A stretch of 12,315 bases of DNA, from positions 1 through 12,315 of the forward strand of contig DMAO01000132.1 of assembly GCA_003446545.1 (NCBI GenBank). Reading direction: 5' to 3'. A program made the position numbers and the translations under genes. Position 1 is the first letter of the stretch. Every line of letters starts with the position of its first letter. Positions 2,366 to 12,315 of this stretch are shown piece by piece. Below the pieces are notes generated by a model. It did no database searches. It was not told the DNA's origin and was given only the letters and a program-made list of their open reading frames with translations. The stretch comes from Sphaerochaeta sp. Lineage in GTDB: Bacteria; Spirochaetota; Spirochaetia; Sphaerochaetales; Sphaerochaetaceae.

Positions 2366-3268
2366 CTACGACTCGATCGCCCCTTTCTTATTTGCATAGA
2401 TAGATGAGCCTATCATTGCCAGGAGGGTGAATATATAGGGTATGGCTAGGATGAAGTCAGAGGGTATGTTCAAAGCCCCTTGTGCATAGTTGGAGAAGGC
2501 ATCAGCAAGGCCAAAGATGAAGGCTGCAATAAGCAGGCCGATAGGTTTCTTGTTTCCTAAGAAGATTACCACAAGGGCTATCCACCCTTTTCCTGCAGTG
2601 ATGTTAGGAACAAAAGCCCCTAGGTTTAGGGTCAGTAGGGCCCCTCCAAGACCACAGGTGAACCCTGAGATGAGGAAGGAGGCGAATCGGTACCGGTTTG
2701 GACGCATGCCCAATGAGGAGAGTGCCTCCGGGTGCAACCCCGTCGCACGAATCCGAAAGCCAAAGGGGGTCCTGTAGAGGACGAAATAACAGAGGGCAAG
2801 CAATAGCCAACTGAGGTAGACAAAGGCAGAGTGTCCGATAAAGATATCACCGAGTATTGGGATCTTTGCCAACTCTGGTGTCCCCAAGAGGGGGAGGGGG
2901 GGGATGTTGTCAAAGACAACAACCCCTTTATTGGCAAACAAGGCAAACGAGAGTACAACCGTCATGCCTGAGGCGAATAGGTTTACGGCAAGGCCTGTGA
3001 TGAAAACGTTGGCCTTTAGGTTCAAGGTAACAGAGGCCAGTATGGCTGACAGGATCATGGTGCACACGATACCAAGCAAGGTTCCCAGTATCATGCTCGC
3101 TGTGTAATAGGAGAATATGATCGAACAGAAAGCTCCCATGAGCAGCAACCCCTCCAAGGCAATGTTCAGCATGCCTGAGAGCTCGGTGAAGAGGCCTCCC
3201 ATTGAGGCAAGCAGCAAAGGGGTCATGATGGTTATCGCACTATGGAGCATGGGGATGGTGAATTGCAT
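2366..3268 (-). CDS. BMP-type ABC importer permease (second subunit)
   Basis: Inner-membrane permease, 300 aa, of the branched-chain amino acid/ribose-type permease family as found in YufQ/NupQ-like importers. It forms a heterodimeric channel with the permease encoded just upstream. The chain is almost entirely hydrophobic with about eight to ten membrane segments. The family motif GMLNIALEG lies at residues 32-40, and the ATPase-contacting region towards the C-terminus reads GKGWIALVVIFLG. Its ATG (3268-3266) shares one base with the stop of the preceding permease (TGATG), and AGGAGG lies just upstream, so translation is probably coupled. It is the last gene of the operon. The transported substrate cannot be told from the permease; nucleosides are usual for relatives, but the operon content suggests a sugar-like solute. 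Confidence 0.9.
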   Translation of the reverse strand: MQFTIPMLHSAITIMTPLLLASMGGLFTELSGMLNIALEGLLLMGAFCSIIFSYYTASMILGTLLGIVCTMILSAILASVTLNLKANVFITGLAVNLFASGMTVVLSFALFANKGVVVFDNIPPLPLLGTPELAKIPILGDIFIGHSAFVYLSWLLLALCYFVLYRTPFGFRIRATGLHPEALSSLGMRPNRYRFASFLISGFTCGLGGALLTLNLGAFVPNITAGKGWIALVVIFLGNKKPIGLLIAAFIFGLADAFSNYAQGALNIPSDFILAIPYIFTLLAMIGSSIYANKKGAIES

Positions 3269-4329
3269 CAGGAGTACCTCCTCTTCTTTTCAAACAGGGT
3301 GAACAAGACTTCACTGCTGATAAGGAAGAATACGATTGACTGCACTATGGCTGCTATTTCGAAGGTGACATCGGAATGTAACATGGCACTTCGTGCCCCA
3401 GCTTCTATGTAGGAAAAGAACAGGGCAGCAGGTATCACCATTGATGGCTTGTTTTTTGCAATCAGGGCGACAGCCAGACCATTCCACCCCATGCCGGCCG
3501 AAAATTCCTTAATGCTGGAGAAATAGGTCCCGTAGATGGCAAAACCGCCACCGAGGCCATACAGGAACCCACTGAGAAACATGGGTAGTACGATAAATTT
3601 CCTAGTATTGATCCCCCCATACTTGGCAAATCGGCTGTTGAGTCCTGTCATCCGTAGCTGATACCCGCTTTTTGTCTTGTAGAGGTAAATATGAACTATA
3701 ATGACAGCAACCAGTGCAAAGAACAGGGCAGTACTGAGGCTTGAAGGGGGAAGCAATACCGGAAGCCTGAAAGATTCTGGGATTTTCCTAGTTGCTATCA
3801 GACTGGTGGAAGGGTCCATGAAAGGCCCGGCTATTAGATAGTTCACCACCAACACCACAGCATTGGAAATCAGAAATGAGGTTATGAGTTCGCTGGTATC
3901 CCATTTCATGCGCAGGTATCCCGAAAGGCCTGCAAGGCCTCCTGCTACAAATGCCCCTATGAAGAGGGCAAGGATGGCTCCAACCACACCAAGGGGCGCA
4001 AGGTAGAGTGCAAAAAGGGTGGTTGCCAGGGCCCCACTGTAAATCTGGCCTTCCCCTCCTAGGTTGAAGTTGCCCGACCTCATGGCAAGGGATATCCCCA
4101 AGCCTCCAAATATCAGTGGGATAGCCCCATTGAGCATATTGCCAAAATAGTAGGCGTTCTGCAGAGGACCTAGAAAAAAGTACCTAAGGGTCTTGGACGG
4201 GGTCTTGCTGAGTAGGAAGGATAGGATTATCACCCCGGAGAGTGCTATCAGGACAATCAGGAGACTTCCGATACTTTCTTTTAGGGTGGGGAATGCATTT
4301 TTGCTTGTTGGATTTCTTTTCTCAGACAT
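3268..4329 (-). CDS. BMP-type ABC importer permease (first subunit)
   Basis: Inner-membrane permease, 353 aa, YufP/NupP-like partner of the following gene. After a short polar N-terminus come a first membrane helix at about residues 20-41, a loop, and then a series of hydrophobic helices. The family signature reads MRSGNFNLGGEGQIYSGA (83-100), and a second conserved region has GMGWNGLAVALIA. The open frame extends upstream by 48 codons, but those residues (S/C/R-rich, no family look) lie over the end of the ATPase gene. The ATG at 4329 gives a normal N-terminus and overlaps the ATPase stop by eight bases, typical of coupled translation. Function as transporter subunit is secure; substrate is unknown. 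Confidence 0.9.
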   Translation of the reverse strand: MSEKRNPTSKNAFPTLKESIGSLLIVLIALSGVIILSFLLSKTPSKTLRYFFLGPLQNAYYFGNMLNGAIPLIFGGLGISLAMRSGNFNLGGEGQIYSGALATTLFALYLAPLGVVGAILALFIGAFVAGGLAGLSGYLRMKWDTSELITSFLISNAVVLVVNYLIAGPFMDPSTSLIATRKIPESFRLPVLLPPSSLSTALFFALVAVIIVHIYLYKTKSGYQLRMTGLNSRFAKYGGINTRKFIVLPMFLSGFLYGLGGGFAIYGTYFSSIKEFSAGMGWNGLAVALIAKNKPSMVIPAALFFSYIEAGARSAMLHSDVTFEIAAIVQSIVFFLISSEVLFTLFEKKRRYS

Positions 4330-5863
4330 GCGAAGCCCCTTGCTTTCTGATGCCCAGCATGTATTCCCCAATCTCTTCCTTGGAAAGGTTCCTTGCCTCA
4401 TCACCGACAAAAGAGGCAACCCTTGTTCCCCTGTACAGTACGATAATCCTATCAGAGATTGTAAGGATCTCATCGAGATTGGAAGAAATGAGGATTACCG
4501 CTGCCCCTTTGTCCCGAAGAGATGCCATCTGCTCGTATACAAACTGGCTGCTGGCAATATCGAGACCCCAGGTGGGTTCTGAGAAAACGATGTAGTCCTG
4601 GTAGCGTTCTATCTCCCTGGCCAGAATCACTTTCTGGATGTTCCCCCCTGACATGGTACCGATAGGCATCTGGGCCGTACCCTTGGTGGAGTATTTTTCC
4701 AATAGGTCGTTGGTGTGTTTAGTGACCTGTCTCTGATCGATAAATCCATTTTTTCGGAAGGATCTGCTCTCTCCTACAATAATGTTCTCCTGTACACTCG
4801 CCTTGAGGGAACTGCCTATCTGTAGTCTGTCGGAAGGAACGTAGGCAAGGCCTTGCCTACGAAGTTGGGCGGTTCCAATATTGGTAATGTCATTTCCGTC
4901 ATGCAGGATTTTCCCATCGAAGACAGGGATGAACCCTCCTAGCACTGCTTCAAGGACTCCCAATCCGTTACCGCTGACTCCCGCAAAGCCTAATATTTCC
5001 CCAGAGTAGGCTGTGAAATTGAGGTCTTTGAGTAAGGGTCTCTCTTGGCCTTGTCTGAGAACGGTTATTTTCTTGCATTCTATAACAGGTTGACTCTCAT
5101 CGGTTCGCTTTGCATGCTTGATGGAGAGCGATATGCTCTTACCCATCATCAAAGCTGAGATCTGCTGTTCATTTACATCCTTTGTCTCATAGGTGCCAAG
5201 CATCTTTCCTTGTCGCATGACAACCACACGGTCACTTATGGCTATGATCTCCTTGAGCTTGTGGGTAATGAGAATCAGTGACTTGCCCCTTTTTGCAAGT
5301 TGTTTGAGGGATGAGAACAGGGCTTCAATCTCTAGTTCGGTGAGAACGGTCGTCGGTTCGTCTAGGATGAGGATATCAACATCCCTATAGAGCATCTTGA
5401 TGATTTCAACCTGTTGCTTTTGCCCGACGGTAAGGTTCCGTACCAACATGTCTGCCTCAATGGAGAAATGGTGGTGGGCAATCGCCTCATTGACTAGGGA
5501 GACTGCTTTTTTCAGGTCATAGGCAATGCCATACTTTCGTGGCTCGATGCCCATGACAACATTCTGGGCAACGGTAAAATCCTCCACAAGCATAAAGTGC
5601 TGGTGGACCATACCAATTCCCAGACGGTTGGCAACCAAGGGAGAGCTTATGTTCTCTTGGTTGCCCCGTATCCTAATAGTGCCTTTCTCATGGCTCTCGA
5701 GGCCATACAGCACTTTCATCAGGGTTGTCTTTCCAGCTCCGTTCTCACCTGCAAGACAGAGAATCTCTCCCTTTCGTAATGAAAAATCTATCCCATCATT
5801 GGCACGGAGGTTATTTTCTGGATATGTCTTAGTGATATTGCGCATCTCAACAGCAAGTTCCAA
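4322..5863 (-). CDS. BMP-type ABC importer ATPase with two ABC domains
   Basis: Cytoplasmic ATPase of about 513 aa with two nucleotide-binding domains in one chain, as in YufO/NupO and RbsA-type proteins. Residue numbers here count from the upstream GTG at 5872. Domain 1: Walker A GENGAGKT (42-49), Q-loop in VHQHFML (89-95), signature LTVGQKQQ (147-154), Walker B ILILDEPT (167-174), switch histidine in ITHK. Domain 2: degenerate Walker A GVSGNGLG (298-305) without lysine, signature MSGGNIQK (407-414), and FSEPTWGLD (430-438). The weakened second site is normal for this family. The start is chosen as TTG at 5863: AAGGAG (5877-5872) is eight bases upstream of it, but overlaps the GTG at 5872 and is only two bases from the ATG at 5869. 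The gene begins close behind the binding protein and overlaps the next permease. Confidence 0.92.
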   Translation of the reverse strand: MELAVEMRNITKTYPENNLRANDGIDFSLRKGEILCLAGENGAGKTTLMKVLYGLESHEKGTIRIRGNQENISSPLVANRLGIGMVHQHFMLVEDFTVAQNVVMGIEPRKYGIAYDLKKAVSLVNEAIAHHHFSIEADMLVRNLTVGQKQQVEIIKMLYRDVDILILDEPTTVLTELEIEALFSSLKQLAKRGKSLILITHKLKEIIAISDRVVVMRQGKMLGTYETKDVNEQQISALMMGKSISLSIKHAKRTDESQPVIECKKITVLRQGQERPLLKDLNFTAYSGEILGFAGVSGNGLGVLEAVLGGFIPVFDGKILHDGNDITNIGTAQLRRQGLAYVPSDRLQIGSSLKASVQENIIVGESRSFRKNGFIDQRQVTKHTNDLLEKYSTKGTAQMPIGTMSGGNIQKVILAREIERYQDYIVFSEPTWGLDIASSQFVYEQMASLRDKGAAVILISSNLDEILTISDRIIVLYRGTRVASFVGDEARNLSKEEIGEYMLGIRKQGASHV

Positions 5864-5893
5864 TAGCATCACTCCTTGGAAAACACGTATTTC

Positions 5894-6931
5894 TTACAGG
5901 GCAGGCAGAGTATAGGCAATCTTGCCCTTATAGATGTCGTCCATGAATGCATTGAACTGAACCCTGATGGTTTCGGGAAGGTTGTTGGTATATGCAGGAT
6001 CATCAGCAAAGAAACCCAGATACCCGTCTTGTGCGCCGACAATGGAGGCAGCCCCATATTCTATGGTTCCACTGAGTGCATTTTTCAGAATTTCCTTGGT
6101 CAGCTTTTTCTGTTCCATTGAACCACAGCCTACCACATAACCCGGTGCATTTTTGTACTCATTGCTATTGTGGAAGACAATATAGGCACCCTGTTCCTTG
6201 GCTACCTTGAACAGCCCTTGGGCAGCACCACCGGCGATGGCTGCAAAGACATCAACGCCTGCATTTTTCATACTGGTAGCAAGATCGGCAGTCTTATTGG
6301 CATCGAACCAGTTGCCAATGACCCGGAAATCCAGTTCAATGTTTGGATTTACCATCCTTGCACCATCGAGGAAGCCTGGTAGCATATGCTTGTTCAGCAA
6401 AGGATACTCTTGGGCAACAATGAATCCGATTTTTAAATCCTTGTTTGCATGGCTCATGTTGCTGGTGGTCACCAAACCTGCAAGATAGCCCAGGTAGAGG
6501 GACTGTTCATACTGGTTGAAGAGATAGGTCCGTATCTGTGGATTCCCTTCCATAAAGGCATCGGTGATAACAAACTTCTGTTTGGGAAATTTCTTACCGA
6601 TGGATGCACAGATTTCCGGCAAGGAGGGGTTGGACGTCAATACCAGATCATATTCCCCGGTAGCTACCAAGGAAGTGAGCTGCTCTTCCCACTGTGCCTG
6701 GTTGAAGCCAGCCTCATATACCTTCACTGTAATATTTTGGTTTTCAGAGGCGAACTCTGTAGCTCCTTCAGCTAGGGCTTCGTAGGGAGGGCTTCCTGCA
6801 GTCACTCCGGCAATATATACCAAGACTGAGAGAGAAGGTGTATTTGGTATCTCCTTCTCCATATTTCCTGCAGCTACAGCAAGAGAGAGAACTATGCCAA
6901 AGAGTAGTGACATACTGATTATTTTTTTCAT
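5894..6931 (-). CDS. BMP-family periplasmic substrate-binding protein
   Basis: Solute-binding component of the ABC importer, 345 aa, of the basic membrane protein/PnrA (TmpC, Med-like) family. A signal peptide covers about residues 1-22 (KK, hydrophobic core, then AVAAGN). Family features follow: AGVTAGSPPYE (41-51), FNQAQWEEQL (76-85), DLVLTSNPSLPE (95-106) then KFVITDA (119-125), GYLAGLV (148-154), and the second lobe around FAAIAGGAAQGL (229-240). No cysteine occurs at the signal peptide end, so unlike most BMP proteins it does not look lipid-anchored. The ATG has AAGGAG seven bases upstream. Known relatives bind nucleosides; here the neighbours are a dehydrogenase, sugar kinase and aldolase, so the ligand may instead be a polyol, sugar or related compound (inference). 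Confidence 0.92.
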   Translation of the reverse strand: MKKIISMSLLFGIVLSLAVAAGNMEKEIPNTPSLSVLVYIAGVTAGSPPYEALAEGATEFASENQNITVKVYEAGFNQAQWEEQLTSLVATGEYDLVLTSNPSLPEICASIGKKFPKQKFVITDAFMEGNPQIRTYLFNQYEQSLYLGYLAGLVTTSNMSHANKDLKIGFIVAQEYPLLNKHMLPGFLDGARMVNPNIELDFRVIGNWFDANKTADLATSMKNAGVDVFAAIAGGAAQGLFKVAKEQGAYIVFHNSNEYKNAPGYVVGCGSMEQKKLTKEILKNALSGTIEYGAASIVGAQDGYLGFFADDPAYTNNLPETIRVQFNAFMDDIYKGKIAYTLPAL

Positions 6932-6953
6932 TATATGCTCCTTAGTGCCAGGT

Positions 6954-6974
6954 AAAAAATTGCAGTGGCCTGCA
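6954..6974 (-). terminator. Weak hairpin plus T run inside the operon, possible attenuator
   Basis: Read on the - strand, the aldolase stop is followed by the stem TGCAG/CTGCA around a GCCA loop, then A and six T's. This looks like a short intrinsic terminator. The stem has only five pairs, so it would be leaky. It lies in the 46-bp gap between catabolic genes and importer genes, where it could lower expression of the transport half. Alternatively it marks an RNA processing site. Confidence 0.35.
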
Positions 6975-6977
6975 CCT

Positions 6978-7784
6978 CTAAGCTTCTACCTTTGCCAGAG
7001 CCTTGTCTACACCCCAATGGCCATGAACTAGCCCATTAACTGCATTTATCATGGCTTCTACATTTCCAAAAGACCAGATATTTCTTCCCATAGCGATTCC
7101 GCTTCCTCCAGCCTGCAATGAGTCATAGATAGTCTGGAACACGACTCGAACCGAATCGTTCTTGGATCCCCCAAGAATGACAATGGGCACAGGGCATCCC
7201 TCAACAACACGGGCGAAGGATTCAACGCTTCCTGTGTAGTAGGTCTTGATGAGATCTGCTCCGATCTCGGCTCCCATGCGAGCTACCATCCTGATTGCCT
7301 CACTCTCATGGGGGGCAAACTCCTTCCCCCCTATGGTTCCCTTTGCCATAGCTTCCAGCATGACAGGCAATCCAAGGCGGTGACAGCGGTCTATGGCAAG
7401 GGAGGCTTGCCTGATGAAGTAGCCTTCCCGCTCATGGCCGAATTTGACTGTGATGGCAGCACATGATGAGCCGTAGGCGATTGCTGTCTCGGGCTCGACA
7501 ATCATCTCCTCTTCAAACCTTCCACCCAGAACAGTGAAGCCACCGGTTAGGCGCAAGACCAATGAGGTCTGTCTATCCCATTCTCCTAACGATGCATCGA
7601 CAATGCCTTTGGTGGTAAGGATGCCATCGACCTTTGCATCAACACACGCTTTGACAATTGAGCGTGGGTTTGTAATCCCCGGCATGGGTCCTGCGATGGA
7701 GCCATGGTCCAGGGCAATGATGACGGCCCTGCCATCCTGTTTGTCAAAAATTGCCTGTTTGCGTAGGGTGAGTCCTGATAGCAT
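6978..7784 (-). CDS. LsrF/DhnA-type class I aldolase
   Basis: Cytoplasmic aldolase of the DeoC/LsrF/archaeal class I FBP aldolase group (COG1830-like), 268 aa from the ATG at 7784. The barrel start shows IIALDHGS (22-29); the Schiff-base lysine is K180 in GADLIKTYYTG; VPIVILGGSK (199-208) and GSGIAMGRNIW (227-237) form the phosphate-binding end. The segment around K180 and CPVPIV strongly resembles LsrF, the last enzyme of AI-2 signal breakdown, but other relatives cleave ketose phosphates to DHAP plus an aldehyde. An in-frame upstream extension of 48 codons overlaps the kinase gene and lacks family character. The chosen ATG has AAGGAG seven bases before it, within the kinase stop region, and starts four bases after that stop. 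Exact substrate is unknown. Confidence 0.88.
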   Translation of the reverse strand: MLSGLTLRKQAIFDKQDGRAVIIALDHGSIAGPMPGITNPRSIVKACVDAKVDGILTTKGIVDASLGEWDRQTSLVLRLTGGFTVLGGRFEEEMIVEPETAIAYGSSCAAITVKFGHEREGYFIRQASLAIDRCHRLGLPVMLEAMAKGTIGGKEFAPHESEAIRMVARMGAEIGADLIKTYYTGSVESFARVVEGCPVPIVILGGSKNDSVRVVFQTIYDSLQAGGSGIAMGRNIWSFGNVEAMINAVNGLVHGHWGVDKALAKVEA

Positions 7785-7788
7785 TTGC

Positions 7789-9201
7789 TTACTCCTTCTT
7801 TGGTTTGAGGCTTCTGTAGGTTGCGAACAATTCGTCATAGACCTTTTGGAGTTTTGGCTCTGGTATGAAGAGGTGTTTTGTCTGTACCACAGCATGCGAA
7901 GCTTCCCTGTAGGAAGCAAAGTGCCCAAGGGCTTTCAGGGCAATGATGAGACAGCCCACAAGCTCGGCATCCTGCATGGCAGGGATCAGCACTTCTCTCC
8001 CTGTTATGTCCGCCTTGAGCTGGTTCATGAAATCACTTTCGCTTGGGCCTCCGGTGATTCGCAGCTGTCCGACTTCGGATCCCAACTCCTCCATAACGGT
8101 AATGACATCCCGCATAGCAAAGCAGGTCCCTTCAGCAACTGAACGCAACAGCTCCCTCTTGCCTGTCTCCAGATTCAGTCCGGAGAAAACTGCCCGTGCA
8201 TCGGGATCCCAGATAGGGGCACGTTCTCCACTGAGGTAAGGTAGGAACACTACTCCTCCGGACCCTGGCTCTGCCTCCGCCATGGTTGAATAGAGCTTAC
8301 TAAAGGATACATCGCCGTCACCTACAAGGTTTTTGGCCCATTCTATCGCTTTACCAGAGGTGGAGATGATGCCTGATACATTGTAGAGGGGCGAAACAGG
8401 ATGGTGGTAGGTCATCAGACGAGGGTCTGCTAAGGGCTTTCGCGTACAGAGATTGATTCCTTCTGACGTTCCTGATCTGTTGCAAACCTGTCCAACCTCC
8501 ACGGTTCCAGTCCCTAGGATTGAGACATAGAAATCTGGGGCACCTGCAAAAACCGGGGTGCCGACAGGAAGAGCCAATGTGTTACTGGCGAGGGCAGTGA
8601 CAGTGCCTATCAATTCCCCGGGGTTACAGAAGGGAGGGAATTTGTCTTTGTCCATTCCGAGTTTGGTTACCAGACTTTCTGTCCAGTACCATTGTTGGGA
8701 ATCATCAGAGTGTATAATTGCCTTGGCTACCCCTGTAAGCAAATAGTCAAGATACTCGTGTGAGGAGAGAAGCCACCGGCTCTCCTCATAGGTCTGTTTT
8801 TCATTGCGGAAAAGGTAGAGGGCTTTTGGCAGGAAGAAGCCTGCGTCGACAAAGGTACCCAGTACCTCACTAATTTCTGCACTCTCTGCAACAGGACGCC
8901 GGTCAAGCCAGGTTCTTGCCATGCCTGTCTTAGCAAACAACACCCCTTCCTTGCTTTCAGGATTTCCTAATACTGGTACCAGGGTAGGGCCATTGCCACT
9001 GATGACAACCGCCTTGACCAGAGAAAGATTGCCGAGTGCATTGCAGACAGTACTTAGGGCTTTGCTCCAAAGGATGGGGTTGATCTCATGGTAGTTTGGT
9101 TGTGTACCTATCGTAGCGTGGCTGGTCGAACAAAGGATTCCGGCTTCACTGAACAAAGCTGCTTTGAGGGTTGTTGTACCGAGATCTATTGTCAGAATCA
9201 T
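7789..9201 (-). CDS. FGGY-family carbohydrate kinase
   Basis: Sugar or polyol kinase, 470 aa, transferring phosphate from ATP to a ketose or alditol in the cytoplasm. The N-terminal phosphate-binding loop reads DLGTTTLKAAL (6-16). AGAPDF (219-224) carries the likely catalytic base D223. The C-terminal FGGY block includes FLPYLSGERAPIWDPDARAVF (starting at residue 319). The adenosine pocket lies around RITGGPSESDF (381-391). Length and motifs are closest in appearance to xylulokinase-like members; LsrK, rhamnulokinase and erythritol kinase belong to the same family and cannot be excluded. Its ATG is three bases after the dehydrogenase stop, with only a weak AAGG upstream, so it is probably translated by coupling. 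Its product would be the substrate of the aldolase encoded next. Confidence 0.9.
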   Translation of the reverse strand: MILTIDLGTTTLKAALFSEAGILCSTSHATIGTQPNYHEINPILWSKALSTVCNALGNLSLVKAVVISGNGPTLVPVLGNPESKEGVLFAKTGMARTWLDRRPVAESAEISEVLGTFVDAGFFLPKALYLFRNEKQTYEESRWLLSSHEYLDYLLTGVAKAIIHSDDSQQWYWTESLVTKLGMDKDKFPPFCNPGELIGTVTALASNTLALPVGTPVFAGAPDFYVSILGTGTVEVGQVCNRSGTSEGINLCTRKPLADPRLMTYHHPVSPLYNVSGIISTSGKAIEWAKNLVGDGDVSFSKLYSTMAEAEPGSGGVVFLPYLSGERAPIWDPDARAVFSGLNLETGKRELLRSVAEGTCFAMRDVITVMEELGSEVGQLRITGGPSESDFMNQLKADITGREVLIPAMQDAELVGCLIIALKALGHFASYREASHAVVQTKHLFIPEPKLQKVYDELFATYRSLKPKKE

Positions 9202-9204
9202 TGT

Positions 9205-10227
9205 CTAGTCCGCCTTTATCAGTACACGATAGGTTGTTTTATCCAGAGCTGCTTCCATCGCTTCGCTGATGGAAGCCAAGGGGAAGGTTTTGCTGATGAG
9301 GTCTGCAACCTCTATTGTCTTGTTTGATAATACCCTTACAGCTTGGGTGAAATCAATCTCGCTTCGTCCTTCAGAGCCTGTAATCTGGTATTCGTTTCTG
9401 TGTACAGTGTCCATATCTATGGGAAACTCGGGCCTGTCATCATAGGAAGTGAACACATTTACCCTACCAGCAGGGGCTAGGACTTGGAAGGCCAGATTCG
9501 CAGCATCCTTCGATGGTGAGGTTATGATACAGCAATCAACTCCCCTTCCCCCAGAGAGATTTTTCACTTGCCCAATTAGATATTCACTATCAGAGGCATC
9601 AAGGGCTGCAAAGCAGCCCATTCTTTGGGCATCCTGTAATCTGTTTTTGTCTATGTCACACATGATTACCTTAGCTCCCATTGCCATACCTAACTTCATA
9701 TGGAGCAGGCCCATGGTTCCTGCTCCACAGATAAGCAGGGTATCCCCGAGCTGCAGGCTGACTTTCTTCAATGATCGTATGGCGCAGGCAAGGGGTTCTG
9801 TAAGAGCTGCTGTGGCAAGGGGGAGCTCCTTGGGCAGGATATGTGCCTGTTCAGCACGAACGGTCATGTATTCGGAGAAGGCCCCCAAAATATGCTGTCC
9901 TTTGCTGAATCTGTTTTCGCAAAGGTTGGAGTTGCCTGAAAGGCACTCTGGGCAGATATGACAACGATTGACCAGATCGAGGGCCACATGGTCTCCGATG
10001 GTATGCTTTGAAACTACTTCACTCCCGATTGCAACAACAGTTGCCGAGGCTTCATGGCCAGCGACAATAGGGAAGTATATGGTTCGCTCTCCTGTAAAGA
10101 GCCTTTGTTCCAAGGTACAGATCCCGCAAAATGCAATCTTTACCAACAGTTCAGTGTGGCGAGGAACAGGACGTTCAGTCTGTCGTATCTCAACATGGTT
10201 TGCTTCTGTGATATATGCACTTTTCAT
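9205..10227 (-). CDS. Zinc-dependent medium-chain alcohol/polyol dehydrogenase
   Basis: Cytoplasmic MDR-superfamily dehydrogenase, 340 aa, of the sorbitol/threonine dehydrogenase type. Catalytic zinc ligands appear to be C37 (in FCGIC), H58 and E59 (AGHEA), with E144 in LTEPLAC. The structural zinc lobe has four cysteines, C89, C92, C95 and C103, in the CHICPECLSGNSNLC stretch. The Rossmann fold shows CGAGTMG (167-173), and an acidic end of the second strand (MCDIDKNRL) points to NAD(H) over NADP(H). The segment after the catalytic cysteine reads CTLEQ instead of the common CG[ST]D. First gene of the operon, with GAGGAAAG before its ATG. It probably oxidises an imported polyol or sugar alcohol to the ketose used by the kinase. 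Substrate is inferred from context only. Confidence 0.9.
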   Translation of the reverse strand: MKSAYITEANHVEIRQTERPVPRHTELLVKIAFCGICTLEQRLFTGERTIYFPIVAGHEASATVVAIGSEVVSKHTIGDHVALDLVNRCHICPECLSGNSNLCENRFSKGQHILGAFSEYMTVRAEQAHILPKELPLATAALTEPLACAIRSLKKVSLQLGDTLLICGAGTMGLLHMKLGMAMGAKVIMCDIDKNRLQDAQRMGCFAALDASDSEYLIGQVKNLSGGRGVDCCIITSPSKDAANLAFQVLAPAGRVNVFTSYDDRPEFPIDMDTVHRNEYQITGSEGRSEIDFTQAVRVLSNKTIEVADLISKTFPLASISEAMEAALDKTTYRVLIKAD

Positions 10228-10251
10228 GGCTTTCCTCGATTTTTAAACTTG

Positions 10252-10262
10252 ACGTAAAACGT
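10252..10262. promoter_or_regulatory. Inverted repeat ACGT-N3-ACGT, candidate operator of the operon
   Basis: The sequence ACGTAAAACGT forms an inverted repeat and contains AACGTT, a core often seen in LacI-family operators (a CG centre with flanking A/T). It lies between the proposed -10 box and the dehydrogenase start, where a repressor would block transcription. The LacI-family gene near the right edge is a possible partner. The site is short and the link is inference. Confidence 0.35.
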
Positions 10263-10278
10263 TAGCTTTGTCCTACTC

Positions 10279-10309
10279 ATAGTTTGGGCCTACCTTGGTG
10301 GACTGTCAA
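10279..10309 (-). promoter_or_regulatory. Putative operon promoter with long spacer
   Basis: On the - strand a perfect -35 box TTGACA (10309-10304) is followed, after 19 bases, by AACTAT (10284-10279), which keeps the key A at position 2 and T at position 6 of the -10 consensus. A 17-base spacing would give only the poor CAAACT. Spacers of 19-20 bases are the hallmark of MerR-activated promoters, and a merR gene lies divergently beside it. The spacer includes a small ACC-AA-GGT dyad. Confidence 0.4.
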
Positions 10310-10423
10310 GAAAAATACCATACCACCCATTTGTTCCAAAAAAGCCTTACTGCCCCCATTCTGAGAGTGTTACATCGCATTCAAAGAAGAGATGCTTGAC
10401 CCAATTCACTTGATGAGGGGGTA

Positions 10424-10435
10424 TTGCACTTGCAA
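10424..10435. promoter_or_regulatory. Dyad TTGC-ACTT-GCAA upstream of merR
   Basis: A perfect inverted repeat ATTGCA-CT-TGCAAT covers 10423-10436 and ends 65 bases before the merR start. The inner core TTGC-N4-GCAA recurs at the ferritin-like gene (11646-11657). It could be the binding site for MerR autoregulation. A convincing -10 box for merR was not found: CATGAT at 10448-10453 is a weak candidate, 17 bases after TTGCAC. Confidence 0.45.
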
Positions 10436-10501
10436 TGACATCGCTTCCATGATAGTTGTTATAGCAGTATTTGATCTTGAAAAAGCAACAGAGAGGAAGC
10501 C

Positions 10502-10960
10502 GTGGCAGAGAGAAGGTATAGGATAGGGGAACTCGCCCGTAAGGCAGGGGTCACCGCTAGGACAGTGCGATACTATGAGGCCCTTGGCCTGCTGAAAACC
10601 CAGGATCGGCAGGATGGGGGACAGCGGTACTATAGTGATGAGGATTTGGTCTACTTGAACCGAATCCTTCAGCTGAAGAGGTATGGCCTCTGCCTTGATG
10701 AGATTGCTGAGATTATCCGATTGGGAAATGAGGATTCCACCGGTCAGAAGCGTCGTCTTGAGCTTCTCAAGCAGTACCGAAAATTATTGAGCCGGGAACT
10801 GCAGCATCTGAAGGATGTCAAAGCTCTGATAGATGACCTAAGCTGGCATGTTGAGCAGCTGGAGTCTGTGGAACTTGATTTTCAGCAGTGCCCGGGTACC
10901 GCTTGTGAGAAGTGTGAATTCAAGGGACGCTGTGAGTTCTACCAGGGGCAAGAAGCATGA
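10502..10960 (+). CDS. MerR-family regulator with C-terminal cysteine cluster
   Basis: DNA-binding regulator, 152 aa. The N-terminal MerR winged helix-turn-helix covers about residues 6-75, with YRIGELARKAGVTARTVRYYE (from residue 6), then GLL and GGQRYYSDEDL in the wing. A coiled-coil dimerisation helix follows at about 80-122. The tail holds CPGTACEKCEFKGRC with cysteines at 130, 135, 138 and 144, spaced C-X4-C-X2-C-X5-C. SoxR holds an iron-sulfur cluster in a comparable place but with different spacing, so this tail may bind a cluster or a metal ion (inference). The start is GTG at 10502, preceded by AGAGGAA. The gene is divergent from the catabolic operon, which it may activate, and convergent with the ferritin-like gene. 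Confidence 0.92.
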   Translation: MAERRYRIGELARKAGVTARTVRYYEALGLLKTQDRQDGGQRYYSDEDLVYLNRILQLKRYGLCLDEIAEIIRLGNEDSTGQKRRLELLKQYRKLLSRELQHLKDVKALIDDLSWHVEQLESVELDFQQCPGTACEKCEFKGRCEFYQGQEA

Positions 10961-11117: not shown

Positions 11118-11597
11118 TCAATAATCCTCACGCTTTCCGAACTCGGCATTCTCAACCCATCTCTGAGGACGGCTTACCAATTTTACCAGTTCATCCAAGG
11201 TCTCATAGTGCTTCTTCTCTTCTGCCAATATTCTCTTGACTGCCTTTTGCTCCTCAGCGTCCTCCAGGTCAGCAAGATGGGAGGTATAGAGCTCAATGCT
11301 CTTCTGCTCAATCTCCAATGCCTTTTCATACATGCTGACTTGAGGAGCCTCTTTGAGGTAGTCATCCTGTTTGAATTGCTTGAAAATTGCCTGTGCTTCT
11401 TCAGCAACACTGCTGGGAACCATAGCAGGCACAGACTTGTTTTTGAGCGAGGTGAAGACCTTTATGTGATTGTTTTCATCTTTAGCCAACATGGTAAAGA
11501 TAGATTTGAAGCCATTGGTTGTAGCCTGAGAAGCAAGATCCTCATAAAAAGCAACTCCTTCCTGTTCCAACTGAATCGCAATAGTAAAAATATCCAT
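11118..11597 (-). CDS. Ferritin-like (rubrerythrin-type) diiron protein
   Basis: Small four-helix protein, 159 aa, of the COG1633/rubrerythrin-domain group. Metal-ligand pattern: E13 in QEGVAFYE, E41 and H44 in the first ExxH (ENNH), E98 in ALEIEQKS, then E127 and H130 in the second ExxH (EKKH). It has no C-terminal rubredoxin CxxC module, so it is a short form of the family. Such proteins are linked to peroxide reduction or iron handling in anaerobes; the exact activity cannot be told. The ATG at 11597 has a strong GGAGGA nine bases upstream. A longer in-frame start 20 codons earlier would run across the promoter and ribosome binding site and was not used. It shares a promoter dyad with the merR gene. 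Confidence 0.85.
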   Translation of the reverse strand: MDIFTIAIQLEQEGVAFYEDLASQATTNGFKSIFTMLAKDENNHIKVFTSLKNKSVPAMVPSSVAEEAQAIFKQFKQDDYLKEAPQVSMYEKALEIEQKSIELYTSHLADLEDAEEQKAVKRILAEEKKHYETLDELVKLVSRPQRWVENAEFGKREDY

Positions 11598-11627
11598 AGT
11601 GGTATCTCCTCCTCGCTTCTTATTTGC

Positions 11628-11657
11628 ATTGTACCAAGCCTTCCCTTGCCTTGGCAA
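11628..11657 (-). promoter_or_regulatory. Promoter of the ferritin-like gene
   Basis: On the - strand the -35 box TTGCCA (11657-11652) and -10 box TACAAT (11633-11628) are 18 bases apart, and TGG before the -10 gives an extended -10 motif. The ferritin-like ATG lies about 30 bases downstream. The region upstream is A/T-rich. This is the best-formed promoter in the window. Confidence 0.65.
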
Positions 11658-11695: not shown

Positions 11696-12315
11696 TTACG
11701 GTATTGGAATTCCTCCGTTGGTTACCATTACCTTAATTTCGGGGGTATGGACTATCTGTTGTGGGTAGTCTGACCAGTCACCTTTTAGGCGTCGTAGTAC
11801 CAGTGTTGCTACTGATTTTCCTATCTCTTCCAAGGGTTGGCAGACAGCATAATGGCAAAACTGCAACAGGGGGGAGTAGAATAGGTAGTCGAAGCTAGCA
11901 AAGACAATAGTAGGACGGTCTTCTGGTCTGAATGTCTCCATAAGGTATGTAGTGGCTCCGAGATGCAGCATGTCATTGGCAATAAAAAATGCTTGGGGAT
12001 GATTTGGGTTTTGCAATATTGTGTGCATGAGGGAGAAACCCTTCTTCTGGTCCATATGCCCCTCTACAAAGACAAACTCGTCTTCGACTTCTAGATTTGC
12101 TTCCTGCATGGCTTGTCTGTAGCCAAGGTAGCGCTCCTTTGCAGTGGGGATATGGAGGCTTCCCCCTATGAACCCAATGCGTTGGAAACCTTCCCTGATG
12201 AGGCCCTTGATTCCTTGTCGTACTCCATAGAGGTTGTCTGTCAGTACTGTATCAAAGTTGAGGCTAGGTATCTGTCTATCAAGGATAATAGTGGGTATTT
12301 GCTCTAGGGCCTTGT
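11696..12315 (-). CDS. LacI-family regulator, C-terminal part (cut by window edge)
   Basis: The visible 205 codons are the ligand-binding domain of a LacI/PurR-family repressor. The N-terminal DNA-binding part lies beyond the right edge. Reading into the window: LEQIPTIILDRQIP, then TDNLYGVRQGIKGLI, FQRIGFIGGS, ERYLGYRQAM, FFIANDMLHLGA and the closing CQPLEEIGKSVATLVLRRL. These correspond in order to the usual family landmarks (LIDR, DN, GHRRIGFI.G, R..G...A, ND..A.G, and .QP...MG..A...L). The frame stays open to the window edge, so the ATG at 12109 is internal. The end spells a TAA at 11696. Periplasmic-binding-protein-like sensing of a sugar is typical, and the adjacent operon is a candidate target. 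The ligand is unknown. Confidence 0.9.
   Translation of the reverse strand, partial: KALEQIPTIILDRQIPSLNFDTVLTDNLYGVRQGIKGLIREGFQRIGFIGGSLHIPTAKERYLGYRQAMQEANLEVEDEFVFVEGHMDQKKGFSLMHTILQNPNHPQAFFIANDMLHLGATTYLMETFRPEDRPTIVFASFDYLFYSPLLQFCHYAVCQPLEEIGKSVATLVLRRLKGDWSDYPQQIVHTPEIKVMVTNGGIPIP

What the first reader, a model, noticed from the sequence alone, without database searches (positions are those of the whole stretch)
2366..10227. BMP-type importer joined to a dehydrogenase-kinase-aldolase catabolic operon
Seven genes with overlapping or near-touching junctions combine a PnrA/BMP-type ABC importer, normally associated with nucleosides, with an NAD-type MDR dehydrogenase, an FGGY kinase and a class I aldolase. 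The order suggests import, oxidation to a ketose, phosphorylation and carbon-carbon cleavage. No nucleoside phosphorylase, deaminase or hydrolase is present, so a plain nucleoside salvage role is unlikely. This may be a catabolic pathway for a substrate not yet linked to BMP importers.
Basis: partly seen in the sequence, partly recalled or inferred. Interest (0 to 1): 0.75.

Follow-up and report, generated by a model that had tools for sequence, protein, structure and literature searches.

The report
Riboflavin import and side-chain breakdown operon
A spirochaete gene set that looks built to import vitamin B2 (riboflavin), phosphorylate it with an unexpected kind of kinase and cut off its sugar-alcohol tail, which gives candidate enzymes for two steps of vitamin B2 metabolism that are still unexplained.

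The parts
9205..10227 (-). MDR-type zinc alcohol/polyol dehydrogenase, 340 aa; proposed FMN (or riboflavin) 4'-dehydrogenase
   Evidence: PF08240 + PF00107; sorbitol- and threonine-dehydrogenase-like solved relatives; zinc-site motifs GICT, GHE, TEPLA and CHICPECLSGNSNLC located; substrate and product inferred
7789..9201 (-). FGGY-family kinase, 470 aa; proposed riboflavin kinase
   Evidence: PF00370 + PF02782, below the cut-off of every NCBIfam model listed; 91-row clade, support 99, with kinases next to RfuA importers; D6, G8, T9, K13 and D223 invariant in 16 of 16
6978..7784 (-). DhnA/LsrF-type class I aldolase, about 268 aa; proposed retro-aldolase giving DHAP and 10-formylmethylflavin
   Evidence: PF01791; MJ0400 and LsrF solved relatives; K182, at the Schiff-base lysine position of that family (role recalled), invariant in 16 of 16; start codon
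5894..6931 (-). BMP-family substrate-binding protein of RfuA type, 345 aa
4322..5872 (-). tandem ABC ATPase, 516 aa (RfuB-like)
   Evidence: PF00005, two stretches; best NCBIfam model NF047930, below cut-off
3268..4329 (-). ABC permease (RfuC-like)
   Evidence: PF02653; ATG at 4329 overlapping the ATPase stop
2366..3268 (-). ABC permease (RfuD-like), 300 aa
   Evidence: PF02653; overlaps the preceding gene by 1 nt
10502..10960 (+). divergent MerR-family regulator with a C-x4-C-x2-C-x5-C tail; possible regulator of the operon
   Evidence: PF13411; called in 23 of 48 loci

Best explanation
The operon takes up riboflavin through an RfuABCD-type ABC importer and consumes its ribityl side chain. 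Step 1 (importer; strongly indicated): the BMP protein delivers riboflavin. Step 2 (inferred from linkage, riboswitch context and gene replacement): the FGGY kinase phosphorylates the 5'-OH, giving FMN, so it is a riboflavin kinase unrelated to RibF. Step 3 (inferred from chemistry and the fin parallel): the NAD-type MDR oxidises C4' of the side chain to a ketone, making a ketose-1-phosphate-like molecule. Step 4 (inferred): the class I aldolase cleaves C2'-C3', releasing dihydroxyacetone phosphate for glycolysis and 10-formylmethylflavin, which is reduced or exported (an MFS gene is called in 20 of 48 relatives). Control by the divergent MerR protein is a guess from position.
Against: No biochemical test. 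The aldolases of this operon and of fin are not one clade (AU p 1.3e-11 on a 43-row set), and fin MDRs are nearer to MDRs of FGGY-aldolase-MDR clusters, two of which were checked and have SBP_bac_1-type importers, so the enzyme homology to fin is only at family level. The absence of an FMN riboswitch from 27 operon loci (some start within the operon) and the window does not mark the operon as catabolic, because 8 loci with kinase and importer but without MDR and aldolase lack it too, as do most RfuA loci (3 of 17 have one). The kinase/flavokinase replacement does not hold outside Spirochaetia: 4 Bipolaricaulota and 1 Atribacteria genome with the operon enzymes also have PF01687. In 28 of 119 genomes no kinase of either kind was identified (G084 and G102 undecided; best hits only were placed), so another solution exists or RibF without PTAN still works. 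Many kinases of the clade sit beside PRPP synthetase in genomes without RfuA, which could suggest a ribose-type substrate. In one layout the operon abuts SsnA/PreA/YgeW/Xdh-like genes. The window's own genome is 83% complete; no FAD_syn gene was found in it.
Confidence: 0.52

Rival explanations
1. Riboflavin salvage only: RfuABCD and the FGGY riboflavin kinase supply FMN, and the MDR and aldolase serve a side task such as clearing damaged or surplus flavins (overflow) rather than feeding carbon metabolism.
For: Importer and kinase occur together without MDR and aldolase in 8 loci read (L209-L214; L289, L290), and BMP and kinase branches do not separate by presence of the enzymes. These 8 loci lack an FMN riboswitch just as the operon does. 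The fin authors discuss overflow or damage for C. scindens, where ribose and ribitol did not improve growth (PMC12934955 section 16).
Against: The MDR is called in 43 and the aldolase in 45 of 48 loci, in one unit with the kinase; an MDR and a dedicated aldolase are the parts of a carbon pathway.
Confidence: 0.2
2. The substrate is another ribityl or flavin-like compound (for example ribityllumazine, a deazaflavin such as Fo, or FMN/FAD fragments), handled by the same chemistry.
For: The window BMP lacks 11 of 40 signature residues of the FMN-switch set; the enzymes need only a ribityl tail; 6 of the 18 operon genomes hold lumazine synthase (G056, G067, G073, G080, G105, G113) and would not need riboflavin from outside.
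Against: An FMN-switch BMP and kinase (G092) are nested among the operon proteins, and the other 12 of the 18 operon genomes show no lumazine synthase, so riboflavin import fits their needs.
Confidence: 0.15
3. A nucleoside, sugar or polyol catabolic operon with a BMP importer of altered specificity.
For: Other solved BMP proteins bind nucleosides (PnrA, BmpD, Lbp); FGGY-aldolase-MDR clusters with SBP_bac_1 importers exist in relatives; SsnA-, PreA-, YgeW- and Xdh-like genes flank some loci; PRPP synthetase pairs with kinases of the clade.
Against: RfuA-type residues and tree position of the BMP; FMN riboswitch on a BMP-kinase operon; gene replacement of flavokinase.
Confidence: 0.1

Closest known systems
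RfuABCD riboflavin ABC importer of Treponema (TP0298, PDB 4iil)
   Different: In one operon with kinase, dehydrogenase and aldolase; no FMN riboswitch; ligand not measured here
fin (flavin-induced neighbourhood) of Clostridium scindens and other Lachnospiraceae (PMC12934955, 2026 preprint)
   Same: Kinase + MDR-type alcohol dehydrogenase + class I aldolase, often with a transporter; matching clusters in Clostridia loci such as L133, L138, L140, L141 and in one spirochaete, L334
   Different: fin uses a RibF-type kinase and, in most loci read, an APC permease; the aldolases form a separate clade; no ALDH or Grd genes in the window. The preprint's main text has no 'spiroch', 'FGGY', 'retro-aldol' or 'dihydroxyacetone'
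FGGY pentulose/xylulokinases
   Same: Same fold family and catalytic residues
   Different: A separate clade with an SGNGPT-like motif in most members, tied to RfuA importers or PRPP synthetase; no listed NCBIfam cut-off reached
RcaE riboflavin lyase pathway (aerobic; PMC12934955, passages and introduction)
   Same: Consumes the riboflavin side chain
   Different: Needs oxygen and releases the chain as ribose; the window's enzymes are of other families
Putative B6 ABC transporter (NF047927-NF047930)
   Same: Best NCBIfam models for ATPase and permeases; another non-nucleoside BMP importer
   Different: All far below the curated cut-offs

Membership tests
RfuABCD riboflavin importer | BMP protein groups with TP0298 RfuA and FMN-switch BMPs, apart from PnrA | tested here: met
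   68-row clade, support 96; 29 of 40 signature positions
RfuABCD riboflavin importer | ATPase and two permeases in the same operon | tested here: met
RfuABCD riboflavin importer | FMN riboswitch upstream (seen in part of the family only) | tested here: not met
   none in the window, 0 of 27 operon loci; before 12 of 46 RfuA-type BMPs of related genomes
RfuABCD riboflavin importer | binds and transports riboflavin | not testable with these tools
   needs purified protein
PnrA-type nucleoside importer | BMP closest to nucleoside-binding members | tested here: not met
   RfuA ahead of PnrA by sequence, fold and tree
fin riboflavin-degradation neighbourhood | RibF-type kinase gene in the cluster | tested here: not met
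   no PF01687 among the window proteins scanned or in the own genome; FGGY kinase instead
fin riboflavin-degradation neighbourhood | aldolase orthologous to FinC-like aldolases | tested here: not met
   one clade rejected, AU p 1.3e-11
fin riboflavin-degradation neighbourhood | kinase, MDR alcohol dehydrogenase and class I aldolase together | tested here: met
   composition only
fin riboflavin-degradation neighbourhood | induced by riboflavin | not testable with these tools
   needs expression data
FGGY carbohydrate kinases | FGGY_N and FGGY_C domains with catalytic residues | tested here: met
Riboflavin kinase (function, FGGY-type) | phosphorylates riboflavin | not testable with these tools
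   indirect only:
DhnA/LsrF class I aldolases | PF01791 with the Schiff-base lysine | tested here: met
   K182 invariant in 16 of 16; role of the lysine recalled
Putative B6 ABC transporter | above the NCBIfam cut-offs | tested here: not met

The most novel reading that the evidence does not exclude
FGGY-family kinases of this clade are the riboflavin kinases of most Spirochaetia, a non-orthologous replacement for the flavokinase domain that their RibF proteins have lost. In this operon that kinase feeds an oxygen-independent pathway that oxidises FMN at C4' and splits the ribityl chain by a class I retro-aldolase into DHAP and 10-formylmethylflavin. The route was assembled separately from the RibF-based fin route of Clostridia.
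Probability: 0.48. Interest if true: 0.87.

Novelty: new variant of a known kind. Interest (0 to 1): 0.75.

Why it matters
How anaerobes break down riboflavin is open: a candidate gene neighbourhood is described in a 2026 preprint, and the parts of it that I read give no reaction scheme. This operon suggests a simple one (kinase, C4' dehydrogenase, retro-aldolase) that predicts DHAP and formylmethylflavin; the preprint (section 15) lists formylmethylflavin and hydroxyethylflavin among breakdown products found in urine and rabbit caeca. It also names a candidate for a missing step: the spirochaete RibF proteins read here have lost the kinase motif, so their FMN-forming enzyme is unknown, and an FGGY 'xylulokinase-like' protein fits the gap in many genomes. 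If right, many FGGY kinases in spirochaete genomes carry the wrong name and BMP importers gain a catabolic vitamin role. All of this can be tested with four purified proteins.

Tried and rejected
Nucleoside salvage: rejected on importer type. Membership of fin by descent: first suspected from shared composition, then rejected for the aldolase; the MDR tree shows the same tendency. B6 transporter: cut-offs missed. RNA elements in the window: one sub-threshold Rfam match, SIB_RNA 22.5 bits against 56, E 0.92, taken as chance. Promoter and terminator scans around 10180-10560 found nothing. Reading the kinase as plain xylulokinase: not excluded biochemically, but the clade is separate from the xylulokinase-like proteins of the same genomes. 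Lack of an FMN riboswitch as a mark of breakdown: dropped as an argument, because 8 enzyme-free kinase-importer loci lack it as well. That the kinase clade and flavokinase exclude each other was tested outside Spirochaetia and fails there. A first list of 41 genomes with neither kinase shrank to 28 when a profile was used: 13 more gained a clade member, one of them (G090) on a long branch; G084 was left undecided and G102 was not placed. In one search three genomes (G076, G088, G109) were counted as kinase-positive by position and identity, not by tree. Of 23 flavokinase genomes searched with the profile, the best hit of 17 was placed and lay outside the clade, 3 had no hit, 3 hits were not placed; lower-ranked hits were not placed. 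Rows dropped before counts: repeated and partial sequences in the trees, and most 'other' aldolases in the 43-row AU set. Papers: among the titles and abstract starts listed none joins FGGY kinases with riboflavin phosphorylation; among those the only one on an anaerobic bacterial breakdown pathway that I recognised was PMC12934955. The RfuA structure paper was not held, so ligand-contact residues could not be read and the signature test stands in for them.
Full report
What is there. The window is contig C145 of a 2.2 Mb, 83% complete draft genome; by the aldolase its nearest named relative is a Sphaerochaeta metagenome assembly (96% identity). Seven genes run on the minus strand with overlapping or nearly touching ends: an MDR zinc dehydrogenase, an FGGY kinase, a DhnA/LsrF-type class I aldolase, a BMP-family binding protein, a tandem ABC ATPase and two permeases. 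A MerR regulator is divergent. A transketolase gene lies convergently on the other strand and is not obviously part of the unit.

Conservation. The aldolase was sought in 119 related genomes: 26 have a relative at E 1e-30, 18 of them a close one at 51% identity or more. A scan of the named genome collection kept 80 loci; 48 of these carry an operon-type aldolase (47 of the 48 were placed in the tree). Of the 48, the script calls the MDR in 43, the kinase in 46, an importer gene in 37, the MerR gene in 23, an MFS permease in 20 and a PreA-like gene in 8; of 19 loci with 6 kb on both sides, 17 have importer genes. Record titles span Spirochaetota, Bipolaricaulota, Atribacteria, Caldisericota and Coprothermobacterota. 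Three layouts occur: enzymes then importer (window type), importer then enzymes (often followed by an MFS gene), and the two halves divergent. The same association in three orders argues for selection on it.

The kinase. Genes of the same FGGY clade lie beside RfuA-type importers in loci without MDR and aldolase (L209-L214; L289, L290). In other families the clade is paired with a PRPP-synthetase gene (L205), often divergent from an RfuA operon, and sometimes in genomes without RfuA. In G092 an FMN riboswitch (L274:1783-1894) precedes BMP, ATPase, two permeases and the kinase on one strand. These kinases form one clade (91 rows, support 99) apart from the xylulokinase-like proteins of the same genomes.

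A missing enzyme. FAD_syn is found in 95 of 119 genomes. In 44 of them the main RibF copy was read: 29 of 29 readable copies in L244-L273 (30 loci, one unreadable) and that of G017, and 14 of 14 further main copies keep the FAD-synthetase half and lack the PTAN kinase motif. Among the loci the motif is present in second RibF copies (G001, G113) and in stand-alone flavokinases (G037, G066, G028). Across 119 genomes the FGGY clade is found in 55, PF01687 in 24 and both in one (Fisher p 1.3e-6, not corrected for relatedness); the clade is in 41 of 46 genomes with an RfuA-type BMP (38% identity or more) against 14 of 73 without, and 11 of those 14 have lumazine synthase. In the window's genus each of the 12 sampled genomes at least 95% complete has exactly one of the two. 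A profile search then added 13 clade members, among them 10 of the 13 genomes that have RfuA or lumazine synthase but had shown neither kinase. In 28 genomes neither was identified. In 4 of 5 genomes read around PF01687 without the clade (G001, G005, G019, G037; not G040), the FinB-like RibF lies beside an APC permease, which looks like an alternative transporter-kinase pair. Outside Spirochaetia the exclusion fails: four Bipolaricaulota and one Atribacteria genome with the operon enzymes also have PF01687, while one Caldisericota and two Coprothermobacterota genomes show none. There the FGGY kinase would be a dedicated catabolic kinase beside the housekeeping one; Kineothrix, with a fin-type cluster, likewise has two PF01687 genes.

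The breakdown pathway. Of 12 Clostridia loci found with the aldolase, 10 hold RibF, MDR and aldolase together, often with ALDH, Grd-like and APC genes (the other two, L137 and L147, run off the stretch). This is the composition of the fin neighbourhood that Clostridium scindens induces on riboflavin (PMC12934955; abstract and sections 4, 11, 15, 16 and 36 read). A spirochaete, G113, carries such a cluster besides the FGGY operon. From the chemistry (recalled), oxidising C4' of FMN makes a ketose-1-phosphate-like side chain, and a class I aldolase would then split C2'-C3' into DHAP and 10-formylmethylflavin; reduction of the latter gives hydroxyethylflavin. The preprint names formylmethylflavin and hydroxyethylflavin as breakdown products; its main text holds neither 'dihydroxyacetone' nor 'retro-aldol'.

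Results against. The aldolases of the operon and of fin are not one clade (AU p 1.3e-11); fin aldolases and MDRs are nearer to other FGGY-aldolase-MDR clusters, two of which were checked and carry SBP_bac_1-type importers. So the parallel is one of composition, and the breakdown step rests on inference. No FMN riboswitch was found in 27 enzyme-bearing loci (several of these start within the operon) or in the window, but 8 kinase-importer loci without the enzymes lack one too, so this does not tell breakdown from salvage. PRPP synthetase next to many kinases of the clade is unexplained. In one layout SsnA-, PreA-, YgeW- or Xdh-like genes are neighbours, and their role is open.

Verdict. The importer is very probably for riboflavin (about 0.8), the kinase probably a riboflavin kinase (about 0.65), and the full breakdown route is the best single account (0.52). 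Shown: genes, linkage, trees, riboswitch positions, loss of the RibF motif in the copies read. Inferred: all substrates and products.

Noticed in passing
L334:5159-12000 (genome G113): A fin-like cluster (SorC regulator, aldolase, MDR, APC permease, RibF, iron alcohol dehydrogenase) in a spirochaete that also has the FGGY operon.
   Followed up: partly
L337, L346, L348, L349: An APC permease lies beside a FinB-like RibF in four spirochaetes without RfuA-type BMP and lumazine synthase hits: a candidate riboflavin permease.
   Followed up: no
L338-L341, L343: FGGY kinase, DhnA aldolase and MDR clusters (in part incomplete), L340 and L341 with SBP_bac_1-type importers, related to both fin and the operon enzymes; substrate unknown.
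   Followed up: partly
L098, L104, L106, L115, L118, L127: SsnA-like aminohydrolase and PreA-like dehydrogenase genes lie directly upstream of the importer. In some loci genes that read by eye as SelA and SelB follow downstream, with tRNA-Sec in L100, L104 and L106.
   Followed up: partly
L281, L283, L288, L293, L370, L371, L394, L395, L410: A conserved pair of PRPP synthetase and FGGY kinase of the same clade in many spirochaetes, including two genomes of 1.0-1.2 Mb (G111, G089); why these two genes stay together is unknown.
   Followed up: no
L136:8921-17646, L146: A Thermotogae version (MDR, aldolase, BMP, importer, kinase) whose BMP falls outside the 68-row RfuA family and keeps about half of its signature residues (19 of 40 in both); possibly another substrate.
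   Followed up: no
window 11118-11657 (-) and 11696-12109 (-): A rubrerythrin/ferritin-like gene and an ORF without any Pfam match at the contig end; by eye the latter resembles the ligand-binding part of a LacI-type regulator.
   Followed up: no
L099, L109, L113 and others, gene behind the aldolase: An MFS permease is called in 20 of 48 loci, as a rule behind the aldolase; a possible exporter of the flavin remnant.
   Followed up: partly
L121, L124: Two tandem RfuA-related BMP genes of a diverged clade in front of the importer genes in a Caldisericota and a Coprothermobacterota assembly.
   Followed up: no
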